In this document: piece by piece, positions 17,557-46,205 of the stretch
How the letters are laid out: every line of letters begins with the position of its first letter
Numbering within the stretch: the stretch's first letter is position 1
IMG/VR virus record: IMGVR_UViG_3300010368_000009
Location: 1 to 64,000 of that record
DNA: 64,000 nt
Source of the DNA: a virus
Direction: 5' to 3' (one strand)
The notes under the pieces: generated by a model
Told to the model about the DNA's origin: nothing
The model's input: the letters and a program-made list of their open reading frames with translations, nothing else
Database searches by the model: none
Translations under genes and position numbers: made by a program

Positions 17557-17633
17557 GGCTGGTTAGCTTAATTGGTCAAAGTCGGAGCCTCTAAAACTCC
17601 CAGATATGGGTTCAAGTCCCATACCAGCCACCA
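17557..17633 (+). tRNA. tRNA-Sup(CTA), amber suppressor
   Basis: A class I tRNA: acceptor GGCTGGT/ACCAGCC, A73 and CCA; D-stem GCTT/AAGT; T-arm ATGGG-TTCAAGT-CCCAT. The anticodon stem is GGAG/CTCC plus a C-A mismatch at 31-39, enclosing CTCTAAA, so T33 is followed by anticodon CTA at 17591-17593, which reads UAG. A TCT (Arg) reading would need an off-centre loop with C at position 33 and would lose the stem. The amino acid cannot be told from sequence alone. Confidence 0.82.
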
Positions 17634-28686: not shown

Positions 28687-29817
28687 ATGATGAAAACTTA
28701 TCTGGTTGGCGGCGCTGTCCGTGATAGCATGATGAACCGGAAATCAAAGGACAACGATTTCGTTGTTGTTGGTTCCACTCCTGAACAAATGCTTTCCAAT
28801 GGTTTCACCAAGGTTGGTGCAGACTTTCCAGTCTTCCTTCATCCTGAAACCAAGGACGAATACGCACTGGCACGTCGCGAGCGCAAGACTGGTACGGGCT
28901 ACAACGGGTTTGAAGTTGTCTTTGATCCTTCGGTAACCCTGATCGAAGATTTGGCTCGTCGTGACCTGACCATCAATGCAATCGCTATGGATGACGATGG
29001 CGTGGTTGTTGATCCGTTTAACGGGCAACGTGATATCTATGATCGTGTTCTTCGTCCGGTTAGCCGCGAAGCATTTGCTGAAGACCCGGTTCGTGCTCTT
29101 CGTGTTCTTCGGTTCCTTGCCCGGTTTGGTAACAACTGGAAGATGGCTGATGAACTGGTCGAGCTGCTGGTTGATATGCGTGATTCAGGTGAGTTTGAAC
29201 ATCTGGTCAAGGAACGTGTTCTTGCTGAAATGATGAAGGCGATGTCAGAACCACATTGGTATCTCTTCTTCACCACCAAGATCATGGGTCGGCCACTGTT
29301 TGAAGAAATCATCGAACAGATGGTTCCGGTGAATTTTAAAGTCAACATGGGCCATCTTGACCTGTCACGCGCTGAGTTGATTCAGGTTAAACGAATAAAA
29401 ACCAACAAACATCGTTTTTCGTGTGCCGTTGAAATGGTTCATGGTTTCGAAGACCTGTTGAAGTTCCTGAAGGCATCAACTGCTACACATAATCAAGTCA
29501 AAGCTGACATGGCCATCCAATGTGTACACAGGGTATACTGGGGTGATAAAGTATCCCCGGCGGAAATGGCCAAAATAGCGGTCGATAAACTCGAACTGTT
29601 TGATGATCAAAGTCCGATTTTTCGTTTTGTTCAAAATCATGCTGATAACCAATTGGTATCGATGATGTTGAAAGCACGTGAAAAAGCCATGATGGTCAAA
29701 TTTCATAATGCTATACTGCCGGGTGACACGAACCAAGAAGCGGCACAACGTCTTCATGATTTTAGACTGGCGGTAATGTGTCGGGAAATAGCGAACGCTA
29801 CTGATAATGAAGTGTAA
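28687..29817 (+). CDS. cca: CCA-adding tRNA nucleotidyltransferase
   Basis: A 376-residue class II tRNA nucleotidyltransferase that adds or repairs the 3' CCA. MKTYLVGGAVRDSMM is the nucleotide-binding GG/R start, KDNDFVVVGSTP carries the metal carboxylates, EYALARRERKTG and RRDLTINAIAMDDDG are the family motifs, and EDPVRALRVLRFLARF is the neck helix. The tail is helical without a clear HD domain. Two adjacent ATGs fit the GGGAGAG site. Most tRNA genes here already encode CCA, so repair is as likely as synthesis. Confidence 0.94.
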   Translation: MMKTYLVGGAVRDSMMNRKSKDNDFVVVGSTPEQMLSNGFTKVGADFPVFLHPETKDEYALARRERKTGTGYNGFEVVFDPSVTLIEDLARRDLTINAIAMDDDGVVVDPFNGQRDIYDRVLRPVSREAFAEDPVRALRVLRFLARFGNNWKMADELVELLVDMRDSGEFEHLVKERVLAEMMKAMSEPHWYLFFTTKIMGRPLFEEIIEQMVPVNFKVNMGHLDLSRAELIQVKRIKTNKHRFSCAVEMVHGFEDLLKFLKASTATHNQVKADMAIQCVHRVYWGDKVSPAEMAKIAVDKLELFDDQSPIFRFVQNHADNQLVSMMLKAREKAMMVKFHNAILPGDTNQEAAQRLHDFRLAVMCREIANATDNEV

Positions 29818-37904: not shown

Positions 37905-37933
37905 TTGACAAGCTTCAATTATTAATCTATAAG
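37905..37933 (+). promoter_or_regulatory. promoter of tRNA-Ser(GCT)
   Basis: TTGACA (37905-37910), exactly 17 bases, TATAAG (37928-37933), 9 bases before the tRNA. The clearest example of the tRNA promoter class. Confidence 0.8.
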
Positions 37934-37942
37934 TACAGTATT

Positions 37943-38239: not shown

Positions 38240-38507
38240 TAATAAGGTAAAACACAGTCGTATATTTGATCGACCAATTCATCTTTATATTCATATTGAT
38301 GTCCATGCTGGTATAAGTCAGAGTCGTATATTTGATATTATCCCTAGTCGGTGTGGGTATACGTGTGACGTGATTTTAATATATCATGGTGGGTTCGACC
38401 TCGTATTAAAAAACCGCTATTCTCCCCCTGAAGGATTACAGATTTTCAAACGATCAATGGTTCGTGGTAATTTTATAAAGCTTCCTACCAGTTTCAAGAT
38501 AAAATAA
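38181..38507 (+). CDS. unknown protein
   Basis: A 108-residue basic protein (start probably MSEKPVIIWW) overlapping the previous gene by 59 bases in another frame. It contains two SRIFD repeats (HSRIFDRPIHLYIHIDVH and QSRIFDIIPSRCGY). It ends inside a terminator stem. The overlap lowers confidence in the exact start. Confidence 0.5.
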   Translation: MSEKPVIIWWKPGMRSSTIDNKVKHSRIFDRPIHLYIHIDVHAGISQSRIFDIIPSRCGYTCDVILIYHGGFDLVLKNRYSPPEGLQIFKRSMVRGNFIKLPTSFKIK

Positions 38508-38535
38508 AACCCGCTGGATTGCTCCAACGGGTTTT
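38506..38535. terminator. bidirectional intrinsic terminator
   Basis: AAAACCCG (38506-38513) pairs with CGGGTTTT (38528-38535), extended by GGA/TCC near the loop; A- and T-rich flanks let it stop both the plus-strand gene and the convergent Ro gene. Confidence 0.85.
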
Positions 38536-38556: not shown

Positions 38557-40188
38557 TTACCGAACGAATTCAGCCATTACCGATGGTGCGTTAGCATCAA
38601 ATCCAACGATGTCGAGCATGCCCGGATCGTCTGGGTTAGCAATAGTGAACTCCGTTGCAGTCATACCAACAACAACCAGCTTTGCGTTGATGCCGGTCTT
38701 CTTGCGATAGTCACGAAGTGCTTCATGTGGATGAATGCCACCAGCCCATGTTTCATTATCCGTGTAGATAACAAAGACATCAACTTCAATACCATTATCC
38801 ATTGCATAAAGCATTGGTGCTGCGCAATCGGTTCCACCGAATGGAAGACCACTGACCTTGCTAATCACGCCACTAAGCGTTGACGCCCGGCCAAAGTTTA
38901 GTGGCGTGACACCACGATCACCTACCGAAGACGATCCACGACCCCAACCACCACGTGAAGGACTCGTGAAAGAAACAGTATGAGTAACCGGTTCTGTCTT
39001 CATTGTGATGAGAGCCATTGCAGCTGAAGCATCACGTGCAGTCAGATTGGTATTCATAATGTTTTCCCAACCCATTGAGCCGGAAACATCAAGTGCAAGC
39101 AGATGACGCTTTCCAGTAGGAACAACATTCTTGAAGGCCAACATAAATGCTTCTTCAAGAGCGGACGTAATGTTTCCATTAACATTCCATGTGTTATTAC
39201 CACGGAAACCCTTACCACTTTCGTAAGTCTTCAGAGCAAGAAGCACCGCCATTGGGTGGATACGTGACTTATGGATCAAATTTTGGTCCGTAAGACGACG
39301 CACTGCTTCTTGTTCAAACTCGGACATTGGCTTGAATAGATTGATCTTATCCGAAGACATATTTCCGAGATTACGGATCATAGCGGTCATTGGCATCTTA
39401 TCAAAAAGAGCTTCCCAAACCTTTGGTTCGTTCAACATTTCCGTTGGAAGTGCTTCACGAGGCAGGTTAGCGTTCTTGATCAGATCAATCGTTTCCTTCA
39501 CTGTTGCTGTCTTCACCATTTCGTATGCAGTGATGATAGCAGGCAGGTTAGCGGCATCTACTGGACGCCCGGACAGCCAACGGAAGAGCGAGTTACGCTC
39601 TGTGTCGTCTGTCTTAGGGTGTGCCAGACGAAGCAGGTCAAGGTGTGTCCAACCTTCGCGTTGACGATACTTCGTTGTCTGATAGGCAAGATCATCAACC
39701 GTTTGGTTGATATACCAATTACCGACAGCACGACGAAGCGCTGGACCCCAACCACGGAACTGTTCTATGAATTCCGCGAACTGGAACAGGTGTGTACCGA
39801 TACGAGCAACACGAGGCAGAGCCGCAAGAGCGTATGCAGCAACCTTTGGGTTAGCTGGATCACAAGCCATTGCGAGTGCAAACAGAGCTGCATCGTTACG
39901 ATATGCACGACCGTTAACAGAAACGTCAACAATAAGATCGACTGCACGGAAACCATTTTCAGCGATTGCCGTCTTCATGGAGTCTGCATTGCTAAGCGTG
40001 AGTTCACGAGCGGATGCATAATATGATGGTGCATCCGATCCAAGAATCAGGAATCGTTCAAGACGACCGAAGCTATCCAGCGTGAACGAATATCCGCCCG
40101 CGTTGTTTTCCGCCTGCTTAGGGGAAGCTGCTTCTGTTTGTGGGGTTTGTCGGTTACGAGTTCCGACATTCTTATATGCAGTTGCCAT
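38557..40188 (-). CDS. rsr: Ro60/TROVE RNA-binding protein
   Basis: A 543-residue Ro60 (Rsr) homologue, a ring protein that binds Y RNAs outside its ring and misfolded or processed RNA ends inside. TROVE landmarks are FGRLERFLILG (40-50), a HEAT-like repeat region, and TTKYRQREGWTHLDLLRLAHPK (171-192). The C-terminal VWA domain has the MIDAS LALDVSGSMGWEN (364-376) with later FGGTD and YTDNETWAGG. Both domains are full length. GAAGGAA precedes the ATG at 40188. It is the last gene of a minus-strand unit that begins with five Y-RNA-like elements (40253-40828), which supports the call. Confidence 0.95.
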   Translation of the reverse strand: MATAYKNVGTRNRQTPQTEAASPKQAENNAGGYSFTLDSFGRLERFLILGSDAPSYYASARELTLSNADSMKTAIAENGFRAVDLIVDVSVNGRAYRNDAALFALAMACDPANPKVAAYALAALPRVARIGTHLFQFAEFIEQFRGWGPALRRAVGNWYINQTVDDLAYQTTKYRQREGWTHLDLLRLAHPKTDDTERNSLFRWLSGRPVDAANLPAIITAYEMVKTATVKETIDLIKNANLPREALPTEMLNEPKVWEALFDKMPMTAMIRNLGNMSSDKINLFKPMSEFEQEAVRRLTDQNLIHKSRIHPMAVLLALKTYESGKGFRGNNTWNVNGNITSALEEAFMLAFKNVVPTGKRHLLALDVSGSMGWENIMNTNLTARDASAAMALITMKTEPVTHTVSFTSPSRGGWGRGSSSVGDRGVTPLNFGRASTLSGVISKVSGLPFGGTDCAAPMLYAMDNGIEVDVFVIYTDNETWAGGIHPHEALRDYRKKTGINAKLVVVGMTATEFTIANPDDPGMLDIVGFDANAPSVMAEFVR

Positions 40189-40252: not shown

Positions 40253-40335
40253 TTAACGAGCAAATGAGTTGCAGTGGATATGGTTTGTCAAAGTATGAGT
40301 CTGATTATGATAATCCATTACATCCGGCACGTTAA
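40253..40335 (-). ncRNA. Y-RNA-like element 1 (nearest Ro)
   Basis: Read on the minus strand, the ends TTAACG/CGTTAA close a stem, followed by TGC-CGG-ATG on the 5' side and CAT-TT-GC on the 3' side. This gives the internal loop CGG/TT between paired GC and ATG/CAT. The interior has TGGATTATC paired with ATATCCA. No tRNA-like body is present. It ends 64 bases upstream of the Ro start codon. Confidence 0.72.
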
Positions 40336-40353
40336 TATTACTATATTACTAAT

Positions 40354-40499
40354 ATGGCTTTGTGAGCAAATGTATAGAAAATAGGGTTTAAGCGCTCTAC
40401 CGCTGAGCTACCAAGCCGCGAACGACCTGAGTTGGATTCGAACCAACGACCTCTCCATTACAAGTGGATAACCTATTTTCATCCGGCTCACAAAGCCAT
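40354..40499 (-). ncRNA. Y-RNA-like element 2 with permuted tRNA body
   Basis: Minus strand: a 13-bp outer stem ATGGCTTTGTGAG/CTCACAAAGCCAT, the CGG/TT internal loop, then GAAAATAGG paired with CCTATTTTC. Inside lies a tRNA in permuted order. First comes the 3' half, with CCACTTGTAATGG (loop CTTGTAA, TGT) and T-arm GTTGG-TTCGAAT-CCAAC. Next is the acceptor strand TCAGGTC, a 6-base linker, and the 5' half GGCTTGG-TA with D-arm AGCTCAGCGGTAGAGC. Acceptor strands pair at all seven positions with three wobbles. No CCA is encoded. Confidence 0.78.
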
Positions 40500-40504
40500 T
40501 TTAG

Positions 40505-40651
40505 TAAGACGAGTAAATGAAATGACAAAGGGATAATATACAGTTGCGTCTACCAATTCCGCCACTCCCCGTTAGATTGGTCGGGGAGACAGGACTTGAA
40601 CCTGTAATACTCACTGTTCCTTAGATAACCCTAAATCTCCGACACGTCTTA
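40505..40651 (-). ncRNA. Y-RNA-like element 3 with permuted tRNA-Leu body
   Basis: Minus strand: outer stem TAAGACG/CGTCTTA; the GC pairs next to the CGG/TT loop are changed to GT/AC, a compensatory change that supports the helix. Inside is a permuted class II tRNA. The 3' half carries CTAAGGA-ACAGT, T-arm ACAGG-TTCAAGT-CCTGT and acceptor CTCCCCG plus ACCA. A linker ATCTAA leads to the 5' half CGGGGAG, a Leu-type D-arm and ACTGT. ACTGT pairs with ACAGT, and the loop would read AAG (Leu). The acceptor is perfectly paired. Confidence 0.8.
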
Positions 40652-40682
40652 AATCATTTCCTTCTTTGTTCAGTCGTTAGTA

Positions 40683-40751
40683 GTTACGAGCAAATTGTTG
40701 AAAATGGGGGTTCATCAACAAAAGATAACCCACTCTCATCCGGCACGTAAC
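40683..40751 (-). ncRNA. Y-RNA-like element 4 (short)
   Basis: Minus strand: stem GTTACG/CGTAAC, TGC-CGG-ATGA opposite CATTTTC...ATTTGC, inner stem GTGGGTT/AACCC with extra Cs, and the conserved GGTTATC. 69 bases, without a tRNA body. Confidence 0.74.
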
Positions 40752-40760
40752 CGCTTTAGT

Positions 40761-40828
40761 ACTGCGAGCAAATTGTTTGAAATGGGGGTTCATCGTTGCA
40801 AGATAACCCACTTCATCCGGCCCGCAGT
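40761..40828 (-). ncRNA. Y-RNA-like element 5 (promoter-proximal, short)
   Basis: Minus strand: stem ACTGCG/CGCAGT, GCCGGATGA opposite ATTTGC, inner GTGGGTTATC with GATGAACCCCCA. It is nearly identical to element 4 in the core but has a different, compensated outer stem. It begins about 18 bases after the -10 box of the array promoter. Confidence 0.75.
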
Positions 40829-40846
40829 CTTATTGCGATGTGGATA

Positions 40847-40875
40847 TACTTAAGGGTAATAATTCGGGGTGTCAA
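40847..40875 (-). promoter_or_regulatory. promoter of the Y-RNA array and Ro gene
   Basis: Minus strand TTGACA (40875-40870), 17-base spacer, TAAGTA (40852-40847); transcription would start just before element 5 and run through all five elements into the Ro gene. Confidence 0.78.
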
Positions 40876-43357: not shown

Positions 43358-43413
43358 TAATATTAACGAGACACTGCTGAAGGCGTCTTGGCTATAATAA
43401 CATGGAGTGTGTT

Positions 43414-44565
43414 ATGTCCAAACTAACAGGGGTTGATCCCCGTGCCGTATATAATGACGGAAAAATCCTAACCGATTCTCTCGGGCCGGATCAAAAGCAT
43501 GACCTGTTGGTATTCATTGGCCGTTTTCAGCCATTGCATTATGGACACATGCGAGTAATCGATATTGCTCTTACTCGCGCCAAGCAAACATTGATCTTGG
43601 TAGGTTCGGCAAATGTCGGACGAACTCTTTACAACACCTTTACATATCAAGAACGCTACGCGATGATTGCTTCCCAATATCAGGAAGCGATTGATGATGG
43701 CCGTCTTGTGCTTCGTCCACTGGATGATCACACCTACGCTGATGCCGATTGGCTCGAACAGGTTCAAGATATCGTTGAACACGATGTTCTCAAGAATAAA
43801 ACTGCAAAGACTATCAGTCTGATTGGTTGTGAGAAAGATCACACCAGTTATTACCTTGGTCTGTTTCCGCAGTGGGGCAACATTGGTGTTGAATTCAAGG
43901 TGCCGTTGAACAGTACTGATGTTCGCAAAGCTGTATTCCTTCAAAAGAATAGTTATAATCCCGGTCCCGGTTCTGGTCGCATCATTAATGAAGAATACGA
44001 GTTTATTCATAAAGCGTGTCCTCCTGAAATCGCACGGTTGCTGTATGCCTTTACGATGCGATCTGAGTATGAAGACATCAAAGAAGAATGGGGTTTTATC
44101 AACACGTATCGTAACAACCGCCAAAAAGGTAATGAATATCCCGTCATCGATCATACGGTTGATGCATGTGTTGTTCAGTCGGGTCACGTGTTGGTTGTTC
44201 AACGTCGCTGGCGTCCGGGTAAAGGACTGTTTGCTCTTCCGGGTGGCTTCCTTAATGAATTTGAACCGGTTGATCATGCCATCCTTCGGGAACTTCGTGA
44301 AGAAACTCAAATTGATGTGAGTGATACGGTTCTTCGTGCCGGTTTTGTGAAACGTGAACAGTTCAGTGATCCACGCCGGTCTGATCGTGGCCGCATCATT
44401 ACTGAGTGTGGTTTGTTCAAACTTCAAGATCGCGCCAAGCTTCCAACGGTTAAGGGTGCCGATGATGCCGCCTGTGCATTCTGGTTGCCATTGAATAAAG
44501 TTGATCCAAGTGCATTTTTTGAAGACCATGCATTCATCATTCGCAAACTGACAAAAGATTTGTGA
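43414..44565 (+). CDS. nadM: bifunctional NMN adenylyltransferase / Nudix hydrolase
   Basis: A 383-residue two-domain enzyme. The N-terminal nucleotidyltransferase (LLVFIGRFQPLHYGHMRVID, with GRFQP and HxGH-type HYGH) would join NMN and ATP to NAD; the later SIxxxR-type region is DHTSYYLGLFPQW/NSTDVRKAV. The C-terminal Nudix domain shows ALPGGFLNEFEPVDHAILRELREETQI. This NadM-NudF arrangement occurs in cyanobacteria and large phages. It is the first gene of a unit with NAMPT two genes on. The start at 43414 is chosen for GGAG. Confidence 0.95.
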   Translation: MSKLTGVDPRAVYNDGKILTDSLGPDQKHDLLVFIGRFQPLHYGHMRVIDIALTRAKQTLILVGSANVGRTLYNTFTYQERYAMIASQYQEAIDDGRLVLRPLDDHTYADADWLEQVQDIVEHDVLKNKTAKTISLIGCEKDHTSYYLGLFPQWGNIGVEFKVPLNSTDVRKAVFLQKNSYNPGPGSGRIINEEYEFIHKACPPEIARLLYAFTMRSEYEDIKEEWGFINTYRNNRQKGNEYPVIDHTVDACVVQSGHVLVVQRRWRPGKGLFALPGGFLNEFEPVDHAILRELREETQIDVSDTVLRAGFVKREQFSDPRRSDRGRIITECGLFKLQDRAKLPTVKGADDAACAFWLPLNKVDPSAFFEDHAFIIRKLTKDL

Positions 44566-44575
44566 GGAGAACACT

Positions 44576-44737
44576 ATGGAAGATGACACCTATCAAATCA
44601 TTCAAAAACTGAAAGATATGGTTGATGAAATCGATCTATATGAAATTGAAATCGCCGCTGCTCGCGAGCGTATCACACAGAACCGGCTGGTAATCAAAGC
44701 ATTGAAGGCCGAAACCGAAAAAGAAAAAGGAAATTAA
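44576..44737 (+). CDS. small coiled-coil protein between NAD genes
   Basis: A 53-residue charged helix (MEDDTYQIIQKLKDMVDEIDLYE ... AETEKEKGN) with an excellent GAGGAG site, placed between nadM and the NAMPT gene with gaps of 10 and 4 bases. It should form a coiled coil. It may bind one of the neighbouring enzymes, an inference from position alone. Confidence 0.7.
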   Translation: MEDDTYQIIQKLKDMVDEIDLYEIEIAAARERITQNRLVIKALKAETEKEKGN

Positions 44738-44741
44738 TATC

Positions 44742-46205
44742 ATGACCATCATTGTAAACGTAAATGAAATCGAACGCATTCTTTCCAATCCGATTCTTAT
44801 GTCAGATTCGTATAAGTTTTCACATTGGAAGCAATACCCACAAAAATCTTTGTATGTGAATAGCTACATTGAATCTCGCGGCATGTGTACCGAATTGGTC
44901 AACAGTGGCCTCGACAACGAGTTGGTATTCTTTGGTATCCAAGGATTTATCAAGCGTTACCTGTCTCGCCAAATCACACCCCAACATATTGATGAAGCTG
45001 AAAAATTCTGCAAGAATCATGGTGAACCATTCAATCGTCGTGGCTTTGAAATAATCGTGAATGATTACAACGGCTATTACCCTGTCAGTATTCAGGCTAT
45101 TCCAGAAGGAACAGTCATCAGTGCACACAATGTTATGGTTCAAGTAATCAATACTGACTCTCGGTTGTACTGGTTGACCTCGTTTCTGGAAACTGCATTG
45201 CTTCGCGCCGTGTGGTATCCAGTTTCCGTGGCTACCAAGAGCCGGGAAATCAAAAAGGTTATTGCCAAATATATGGATGATACGGTTGGCAATCGTGATG
45301 GTTTGGAATTCAAACTTCATGATTTCGGTGCCCGTGGTGTTTCTTCTCAAGAATCGGCCATGATTGGTGGCGCTGCCCATCTGGTGAACTTCATGGGAAC
45401 TGATACCGTTGAAGCCGCTGTATGGCTCTCTGCACTGTATAGTGAGCCTATGGCCGGGTTCTCGGTGCCAGCCGCTGAGCATAGCACCACGACGACTTGG
45501 GGTGGACCGGAAGGCGAAGAAGCTAGTTTCTTGAATATGCTGGAACAATTCCAAGGCAACTACCCGATTATCTCGGTGGTATCTGATAGCTATGACATTT
45601 ACAATGCGATCACCAATCTTTGGGGTGGCACATTGAAGGAAGCTGTTATCGCTGCTTCAAAAATGGGTAGCAAGTTGGTCGTTCGTCCAGACAGTGGTGA
45701 TCCAACAACGGTTCCTATCGATTGTGTTAAACTACTGATGGAAGTCTTTGGATACACGACTAATGATCTTGGGTATAAGGTATTGCCACCATATATCGGT
45801 GTGCTTCAGGGTGATGGTATCAACATCAATTCCATTCGTGCCATTCTTGAAAACATGAAGCGTGCTGGACTGTCGGTGGAAAACATTGTGTTCGGTATGG
45901 GCGGTGAGTTGCTTCAGGGTCATATGCGTGATGATCACAAATTCGCCATGAAGGCTTCTGAGATTCGGGTTGGTGATGAAGTTCGGGATGTGTTCAAGCA
46001 GCCGGTTACGGATGCTATGAAAATTTCAAAGAAGGGTCGATTGGCACTTATTGAAACCAGCGGCGTTGGTTCTCGTGGCTACAACACATTGCGTGAATGT
46101 AATTTGGGCTACTTGGATAAAAACCTACTGCGGGAAATTTACCGTAATGGTGAAATTTTAATCGATGACACCTTTACAACCATTCGGAAGCGTGCCAGTA
46201 TCTGA
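44742..46205 (+). CDS. nadV: nicotinamide phosphoribosyltransferase
   Basis: A 487-residue NAMPT (NadV) that makes NMN from nicotinamide and PRPP. Matching segments are NPILMSDSYKFSHWKQYP (N-terminal), GLEFKLHDFGARGVSSQESA (active site His and Arg), SVPAAEHSTTTTWGG, VVSDSYDIYNAIT, VVRPDSGDP and IVFGMGGELLQ. It is full length. Together with nadM it gives a complete two-step nicotinamide-to-NAD route, as in the phage NARP2 pathway that restores NAD during defence-induced depletion. AAGGAAA ribosome site. Confidence 0.96.
   Translation: MTIIVNVNEIERILSNPILMSDSYKFSHWKQYPQKSLYVNSYIESRGMCTELVNSGLDNELVFFGIQGFIKRYLSRQITPQHIDEAEKFCKNHGEPFNRRGFEIIVNDYNGYYPVSIQAIPEGTVISAHNVMVQVINTDSRLYWLTSFLETALLRAVWYPVSVATKSREIKKVIAKYMDDTVGNRDGLEFKLHDFGARGVSSQESAMIGGAAHLVNFMGTDTVEAAVWLSALYSEPMAGFSVPAAEHSTTTTWGGPEGEEASFLNMLEQFQGNYPIISVVSDSYDIYNAITNLWGGTLKEAVIAASKMGSKLVVRPDSGDPTTVPIDCVKLLMEVFGYTTNDLGYKVLPPYIGVLQGDGININSIRAILENMKRAGLSVENIVFGMGGELLQGHMRDDHKFAMKASEIRVGDEVRDVFKQPVTDAMKISKKGRLALIETSGVGSRGYNTLRECNLGYLDKNLLREIYRNGEILIDDTFTTIRKRASI

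What the first reader, a model, noticed from the sequence alone, without database searches (positions are those of the whole stretch)
40253..40875. Five-member Y-RNA array in one transcription unit with a phage Ro60 gene
Seen: five tandem elements upstream of the TROVE/VWA gene, each closed by its own compensated stem (GTTACG/CGTAAC, ACTGCG/CGCAGT, TAAGACG/CGTCTTA and so on). On the minus strand each carries CGG opposite TT, flanked by GC and (in four of five) ATG/CAT. Element 3 has GT/AC where the others have GC/GC, which supports the helix. All five also contain the inner strand TTATC. A promoter lies just before the first element. Known: Ro proteins bind Y RNAs through a stem with a comparable asymmetric internal loop (CGA/UU in human Y RNAs). 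Inference: this is a self-contained Ro-ribonucleoprotein operon. Bacteria usually show one or two Y RNAs; five short, divergent copies in a phage suggest several adaptors for different partners.
Basis: partly seen in the sequence, partly recalled or inferred. Interest (0 to 1): 0.95.

Follow-up and report, generated by a model that had tools for sequence, protein, structure and literature searches.

The report
Phage Ro60 operon with Y-RNA array
A bacterial virus carries its own copy of the Ro60 RNA-binding protein, preceded by five small "Y RNA" genes, and two of these contain a tRNA cut and rejoined in a rearranged order, so the virus probably makes its own RNA-handling particles with tRNA look-alike handles.

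Summary
Five minus-strand elements precede a genuine Ro60 gene (TROVE + vWA_Ro60). A covariance model built only from other phage loci finds all five (E 5e-13 to 3e-4). Its stems show strong covariation.

Two elements (Y3, Y4) are not short hairpins. They are YrlA-type Y RNAs carrying circularly permuted tRNAs (T arm, acceptor 3', loop, acceptor 5', D arm). Y4 also keeps an anticodon arm (loop CUUGUAA). Y3 is leucine-tRNA-like with a discriminator base and CCA. A related phage contig (Ro 75% identical) keeps the order short, Leu-type, second tRNA-type, short, with a matching promoter.

Five is not exceptional: phage Ro loci held up to 9 elements, and bacterial loci also carry several. The tRNA modules lie upstream of Ro/TROVE genes. 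About half keep a covarying anticodon arm, which is absent from Rfam's YrlA model and from the one description I could read.

Best explanation: a phage-encoded Ro RNP system. Short Y RNAs occupy or gate the Ro ring; tRNA-mimic Y RNAs dock tRNA-recognising partners. Function, transcription and binding are inferred. It is a new variant of a known kind.

The parts
38557..40188 (-). Ro60/Rsr gene, 543 aa, TROVE + vWA_Ro60 with DVSGSM (MIDAS-type) motif
   Evidence: Pfam vWA_Ro60 E 2.8e-62, TROVE 1.8e-41; D. radiodurans Rsr 2nvo E 1.6e-112, RO60 9nen 4e-103
40846..40875 (-). promoter-like site TTGACACCCC-N-TAAGTAT upstream of Y1
   Evidence: one match in 64 kb, 0 in 100 shuffles; same motif before the array in L031; TATAAGTA(T) precedes phage tRNA genes
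40761..40828 (-). Y1: short Y RNA (68 nt), no tRNA module
   Evidence: R2 67 bits E 4.6e-13; fold z -3.8
40683..40751 (-). Y2: short Y RNA (69 nt), near-duplicate of Y1 in its arms
   Evidence: R2 58 bits E 5.8e-11; fold z -4.1
40506..40650 (-). Y3: Y RNA (145 nt) with Leu-type permuted tRNA module
   Evidence: R2 30 bits E 3e-4; weak fold z -1.0, and the module is 2.7 kcal/mol above the minimum-energy fold
40546..40605 (-). permuted tRNA module in Y3: T arm 40589-40605, acceptor 3' CTCCCCG + ACCA, linker ATCTAA, acceptor 5' CGGGGAG (7/7 pairs), D arm TGGCGGAATTGGTAGACGC; no anticodon arm
   Evidence: permuted-tRNA scan: 2 hits in the 64-kb window, both here; reversed-sequence control 1 in 399 kb
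40359..40494 (-). Y4: Y RNA (136 nt) with permuted tRNA carrying an anticodon arm (YrlA-type)
   Evidence: R2 36 bits E 1.1e-5; minimum-energy fold shows Y stem plus anticodon, T, acceptor and D arms; Rfam YrlA 28.4 bits
40394..40469 (-). permuted tRNA module in Y4: anticodon arm ATCCA-CUUGUAA-TGGAG (40453-40469), V loop, T arm 40431-40447, acceptor 3', GTTCGC cap, acceptor 5', D arm 40394-40410
40253..40335 (-). Y5: short Y RNA (83 nt), no tRNA module
   Evidence: R2 46.8 bits E 3.1e-8
38498..38535 (-). terminator-like hairpin AAAACCCGTTGGA-GCAA-TCCAGCGGGTTTT + T-rich tail after the Ro gene
   Evidence: read directly from sequence; not listed by the automatic scan

Best explanation
This is a phage-encoded Ro ribonucleoprotein unit. 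One promoter probably drives Y1-Y5 and the Ro60 gene. Each RNA's terminal stem, with its CCGG/UU-type internal loop and GGUUAUC motif, is the Ro-binding part. Y1, Y2 and Y5 are short Y RNAs that would occupy or gate the Ro ring. Y3 and Y4 are YrlA-type RNAs whose loop is a circularly permuted tRNA, which would dock proteins that recognise tRNAs. In Deinococcus the known partner is the exonuclease PNPase. The phage would thus steer a host nuclease or tRNA enzyme toward or away from structured RNAs during infection. Shown: genes, structures, conservation. Inferred: transcription, Ro binding, partner, benefit to the phage.
For: True Ro60. All five found by a model trained on other loci. Stem covariation. 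Motif matches nematode Y-like RNAs, whose loop also begins with UUAUC (PMC4450293). Permuted tRNA modules lie upstream of Ro/TROVE genes: 24 in 163 kb upstream against 3 in 316 kb downstream in one protein class, 57 in 187 kb against 2 in 287 kb in the other; reversed control 2 and 0. Array order is conserved in L031 with Ro 75% identical. Bacterial YrlA binds Rsr by its stem and PNPase by its tRNA-like domain (PMC8394870).
Against: No transcript or binding data. Rfam YrlA scores are below gathering (28.4 and 15.1 bits against 69). Y3 folds weakly. R1's seed included the window elements, and R2 was built from loci R1 recruited, so the models are not fully independent. The host and its PNPase are unknown.
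Confidence: 0.72

Rival explanations
1. tRNA decoy against host defence: the permuted modules, with a tRNA-like anticodon loop, absorb anticodon nucleases or other tRNA-attacking effectors, and Ro stabilises the decoys.
For: An intact anticodon arm (3 inner pairs, U33, purine 37) is kept in 45 of 88 modules; a looser version of the test gives about 5% at random sites. Its stem covaries: 18 of 25 against 3.0 +/- 1.5 shuffled, 27 of 44 against 6.2 +/- 2.1. Many tRNA types occur. YrlA as a competitive inhibitor of an anticodon nuclease was proposed for Salmonella (PMC7790460).
Against: Half the modules, including window Y3, lack the arm. In related bacterial loci the arm is kept but the triplet differs (CUU, GAU, GUU, CAU), which suits shape mimicry better than a specific bait. 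The same RNAs occur on bacterial chromosomes.
Confidence: 0.15
2. The modules are permuted tRNA genes that mature into working tRNAs, with the Y stem as scaffold, like permuted tRNA genes of algae or the two-piece tmRNA of alphaproteobacteria.
For: ARAGORN accepts the modules as tRNAs once unpermuted. N-CCA follows the acceptor in 12 of 89 modules, including window Y3. The phage has a CCA-adding/poly(A) polymerase-type enzyme.
Against: 38 of 89 acceptor stems are capped by UNCG/GNRA tetraloops, including window Y4. Y3 has no anticodon arm. No splicing step is evident. The phage already has 16 ordinary tRNA genes.
Confidence: 0.06
3. Remnant or passenger: an acquired Ro locus whose RNAs no longer have a role in this phage.
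For: Y1 and Y2 are near-duplicates; Y3 folds poorly.
Against: Array order and stems are maintained in L031 despite sequence change; the Ro reading frame is intact with conserved motifs.
Confidence: 0.07

Closest known systems
YrlA/YrlB Y RNAs with Rsr (Salmonella, Deinococcus; Rfam RF02553)
   Same: Array beside the Ro gene; terminal Ro-binding stem; permuted T arm, acceptor, D arm module in Y3/Y4; short companions like YrlB
   Different: Five members and two tRNA types; Y4 keeps an anticodon arm absent from the Rfam model and from the PMC8394870 description; no rtcBA operon seen beside it; scores below Rfam gathering
Ro loci of Mycobacterium, Gordonia, Microbacterium, Rhodococcus and Streptomyces phages (e.g. 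Sparky, InterFolia, prophiGD43A-5, Trina)
   Same: Ro 36-47% identical; many have Y RNA elements and permuted tRNAs around Ro. Window Y4 is 79.5% identical to Sparky over 109 nt
   Different: Different element numbers and tRNA types; the records annotate Ro but not the Y RNAs, and some modules are labelled tRNA
Nematode stem-bulge RNAs / vertebrate Y RNAs (RF01656, RF00019)
   Same: Bulged Ro-binding stem and UUAUC at the start of the loop
   Different: No tRNA module in those RNAs; the phage RNAs lie in an operon-like array
TROVE-like loci of Caulobacter, Brevundimonas, Xanthomonas and Rhizobium phages
   Same: Arrays of permuted tRNA-bearing RNAs directly upstream of a TROVE gene
   Different: A distinct protein class and a different stem motif (GUUACUUCG and UUCCCC-type)

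Membership tests
Ro60/Rsr protein | TROVE domain plus Ro60-type vWA domain over full length | tested here: met
Ro60/Rsr protein | conserved helix that contacts Y RNA (TKYxQRxGWxHxDLLRLxH; H187 of vertebrate Ro60 needed for Y RNA binding) | tested here: met
   TKYRQREGWTHLDLLRLAH in P0001 aligns with RO60; H187S role from PMC11277228
Ro60/Rsr protein | binds Y RNA as a ring-shaped protein | not testable with these tools
   no biochemistry
Y RNA | encoded beside a Ro gene | tested here: met
   Y5 ends about 65 nt upstream of the Ro start codon
Y RNA | terminal stem with conserved asymmetric loop and covariation | tested here: met
Y RNA | expressed small RNA bound by Ro | not testable with these tools
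   no RNA or pull-down data
YrlA (RF02553) | Rfam gathering score | tested here: not met
   28.4 (Y4) and 15.1 (Y3) bits against 69
YrlA (RF02553) | tRNA-like domain of T, acceptor and D arms in permuted order | tested here: met
   Y3 and Y4; Y4 aligns with the YrlA consensus
YrlA (RF02553) | tRNA-type modifications and PNPase binding | not testable with these tools
   reported for bacterial YrlA (PMC8394870)
functional permuted tRNA gene | complete cloverleaf with anticodon arm, CCA or CCA-addable end, and release from flanks | tested here: not met
   Y3 has no anticodon arm; Y4 acceptor is capped by UUCG; release not testable

The most novel reading that the evidence does not exclude
Ro operons of phages, and some bacteria, carry panels of Y RNAs, each displaying an almost complete, anticodon-bearing permuted tRNA of a different type. 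The panel works as interchangeable tRNA mimics, either baits for tRNA-attacking defences or handles for several tRNA enzymes, presented on one Ro ring.
Probability: 0.3. Interest if true: 0.85.

Novelty: new variant of a known kind. Interest (0 to 1): 0.52.

Why it matters
Ro60 is a human autoantigen whose RNA partners are poorly understood outside animals. Compact phage operons with several natural Y RNA variants, with and without tRNA modules, offer a genetic system to ask what the modules dock and why a virus needs them. The retained, covarying anticodon arm makes a specific hypothesis (tRNA decoy against shape mimic) testable. Phage genome records appear to mis-annotate some of these modules as tRNA genes.

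Tried and rejected
Ordinary tRNA genes: ARAGORN calls none in the array, and the arms are in permuted order. Chance inverted repeats: rejected by the covariance model and the controls. 'Five is exceptional': rejected. An anticodon arm specific to phages: rejected, as Streptomyces-like bacterial loci keep it too. Modules copied from this phage's own tRNAs: no close match (best 54 identities for the 74-nt Y4 module, 60 for the 77-nt Y3 module). A motif-and-stem script for counting elements found only 3 of 5 in the window and was dropped for counting. The generic promoter scan was uninformative. The key papers (Chen 2014, Wang 2018, Sim and Wolin 2018, Sim 2020) are not held, so novelty against them could not be checked.

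Full report
Setting. The window is part of a 101,446-nt virus record. It is a tailed-phage genome: rIIA/rIIB, topoisomerase II and ribonucleotide reductase are recognised, and it has 16 tRNA genes. On the minus strand at 38557-40188 lies a 543-aa Ro60 protein with TROVE and vWA_Ro60 domains, aligned along its length with Deinococcus Rsr and with RO60. Relatives occur in 351 phage records.

Observation. Five elements precede the gene. R1, a model from eight sequences (five of them from the window), recovered 75 elements in 79 other loci. R2, built only from those 75, finds all five window elements. The stems covary strongly on that set. Some dependence remains, because R1 recruited the training loci. 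The Rfam nematode sbRNA model matches Y1, Y2 and Y5 just below its cut-off; sbRNAs are Y RNA homologues with UUAUC at the start of their loop (PMC4450293).

Y3 and Y4 enclose tRNA arms in the order T arm, acceptor 3' strand, loop, acceptor 5' strand, D arm: a circularly permuted tRNA. A scan for that order hits the 64-kb window twice, both times here, and reversed sequence once in 399 kb. In Y4 the acceptor is capped by G-UUCG-C, and an anticodon arm ATCCA-CUUGUAA-TGGAG precedes the T arm; the minimum-energy fold shows all four arms on the Y stem. Y3 is leucine-type, with a seven-pair acceptor, discriminator A, CCA and a six-base linker, and no anticodon arm. It folds poorly in isolation (z -1.0), and the module fold is 2.7 kcal/mol above the minimum.

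Conservation. L031, a 335-kb contig with Ro 75% identical, has four elements in the order short, Leu-type, another permuted tRNA (reads as Val-type, with ACCA), short. It also has the same divergent tRNA-Met and a matching promoter-like site. So the array's composition is kept while the second tRNA module differs in type.

Generality. Permuted modules concentrate upstream of Ro genes in two protein classes. R2 counts up to nine elements per phage locus, so five is ordinary. Two plasmid loci (Rhizobium, Bosea) also show several elements by reading. In 88 filtered modules, 45 have an intact anticodon arm, whereas a looser version of the same test gives about 5% at random sites. When loops were picked without using pairing, 18 of 25 and 27 of 44 had all three inner pairs, against 3.0 and 6.2 after shuffling. 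Triplets are diverse. In Streptomyces-like loci the stem is fixed while the triplet is CUU, GAU, GUU or CAU, which suggests that shape rather than decoding is maintained (inference). Some loci are redundant contigs of related phages, so these counts are not independent events.

Mechanism. By analogy with bacterial YrlA, which binds Rsr by its stem and PNPase by its tRNA-like domain (PMC8394870), Y3 and Y4 would be adaptors and Y1, Y2, Y5 short gate-type RNAs. A decoy role against anticodon nucleases was raised for Salmonella YrlA (PMC7790460) and is the main rival. No step of function is shown here.

Known and new. From my own knowledge of its abstract, Chen et al. 2014 reported Y RNAs near Ro60 in more than 250 bacterial and phage species, at least one per species with a tRNA-like domain; the paper is not held. 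The kind is therefore known. Possibly new are the array size range, the mixture of tRNA types in one array, and the anticodon arm, which is absent from the Rfam model and from the description I could read (D, T and acceptor arms only).

Noticed in passing
window 14200, 20593, 40935, 60745 (+) and 37905-37935 (+): A shared TATAAGTA(T) -10 element, sometimes with TTGACA 17 nt upstream, precedes several phage tRNA genes; the Y-array promoter resembles it.
   Followed up: partly
window 17557-17633 (+): tRNA with anticodon CUA (called Pyl by ARAGORN), possibly an amber suppressor; it encodes CCA.
   Followed up: no
window 28687-29817 (+): PF01743 poly(A) polymerase / CCA-adding enzyme head domain in a tRNA-rich phage.
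   Followed up: no
window 43402-46205 (+): Adjacent cytidylyltransferase-like + NUDIX protein and nicotinamide/nicotinate phosphoribosyltransferase genes, a likely phage NAD+ salvage pair.
   Followed up: no
L025 1200-2440 (Rhizobium phage RHph_TM30); L026 1780-2480 (Xanthomonas phage 10KY502B); L011 2600-3480; L024 1500-2500: Arrays of about 4-8 RNAs, many with permuted tRNAs, with a different stem motif (GUUACUUCG) before a second TROVE protein class; one RHph_TM30 element (about 1920-2060) seems to hold a tRNA in normal order without its acceptor.
   Followed up: partly
L011 2650-2717, L016 1232-1310, L026 2301-2368: GenBank annotates pieces of these Y RNA modules as tRNA-Gln or tRNA-Thr genes.
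   Followed up: partly
L008 4991-5047 (Gordonia phage GMA2): Rfam Pistol ribozyme match inside the tRNA cluster downstream of Ro.
   Followed up: no
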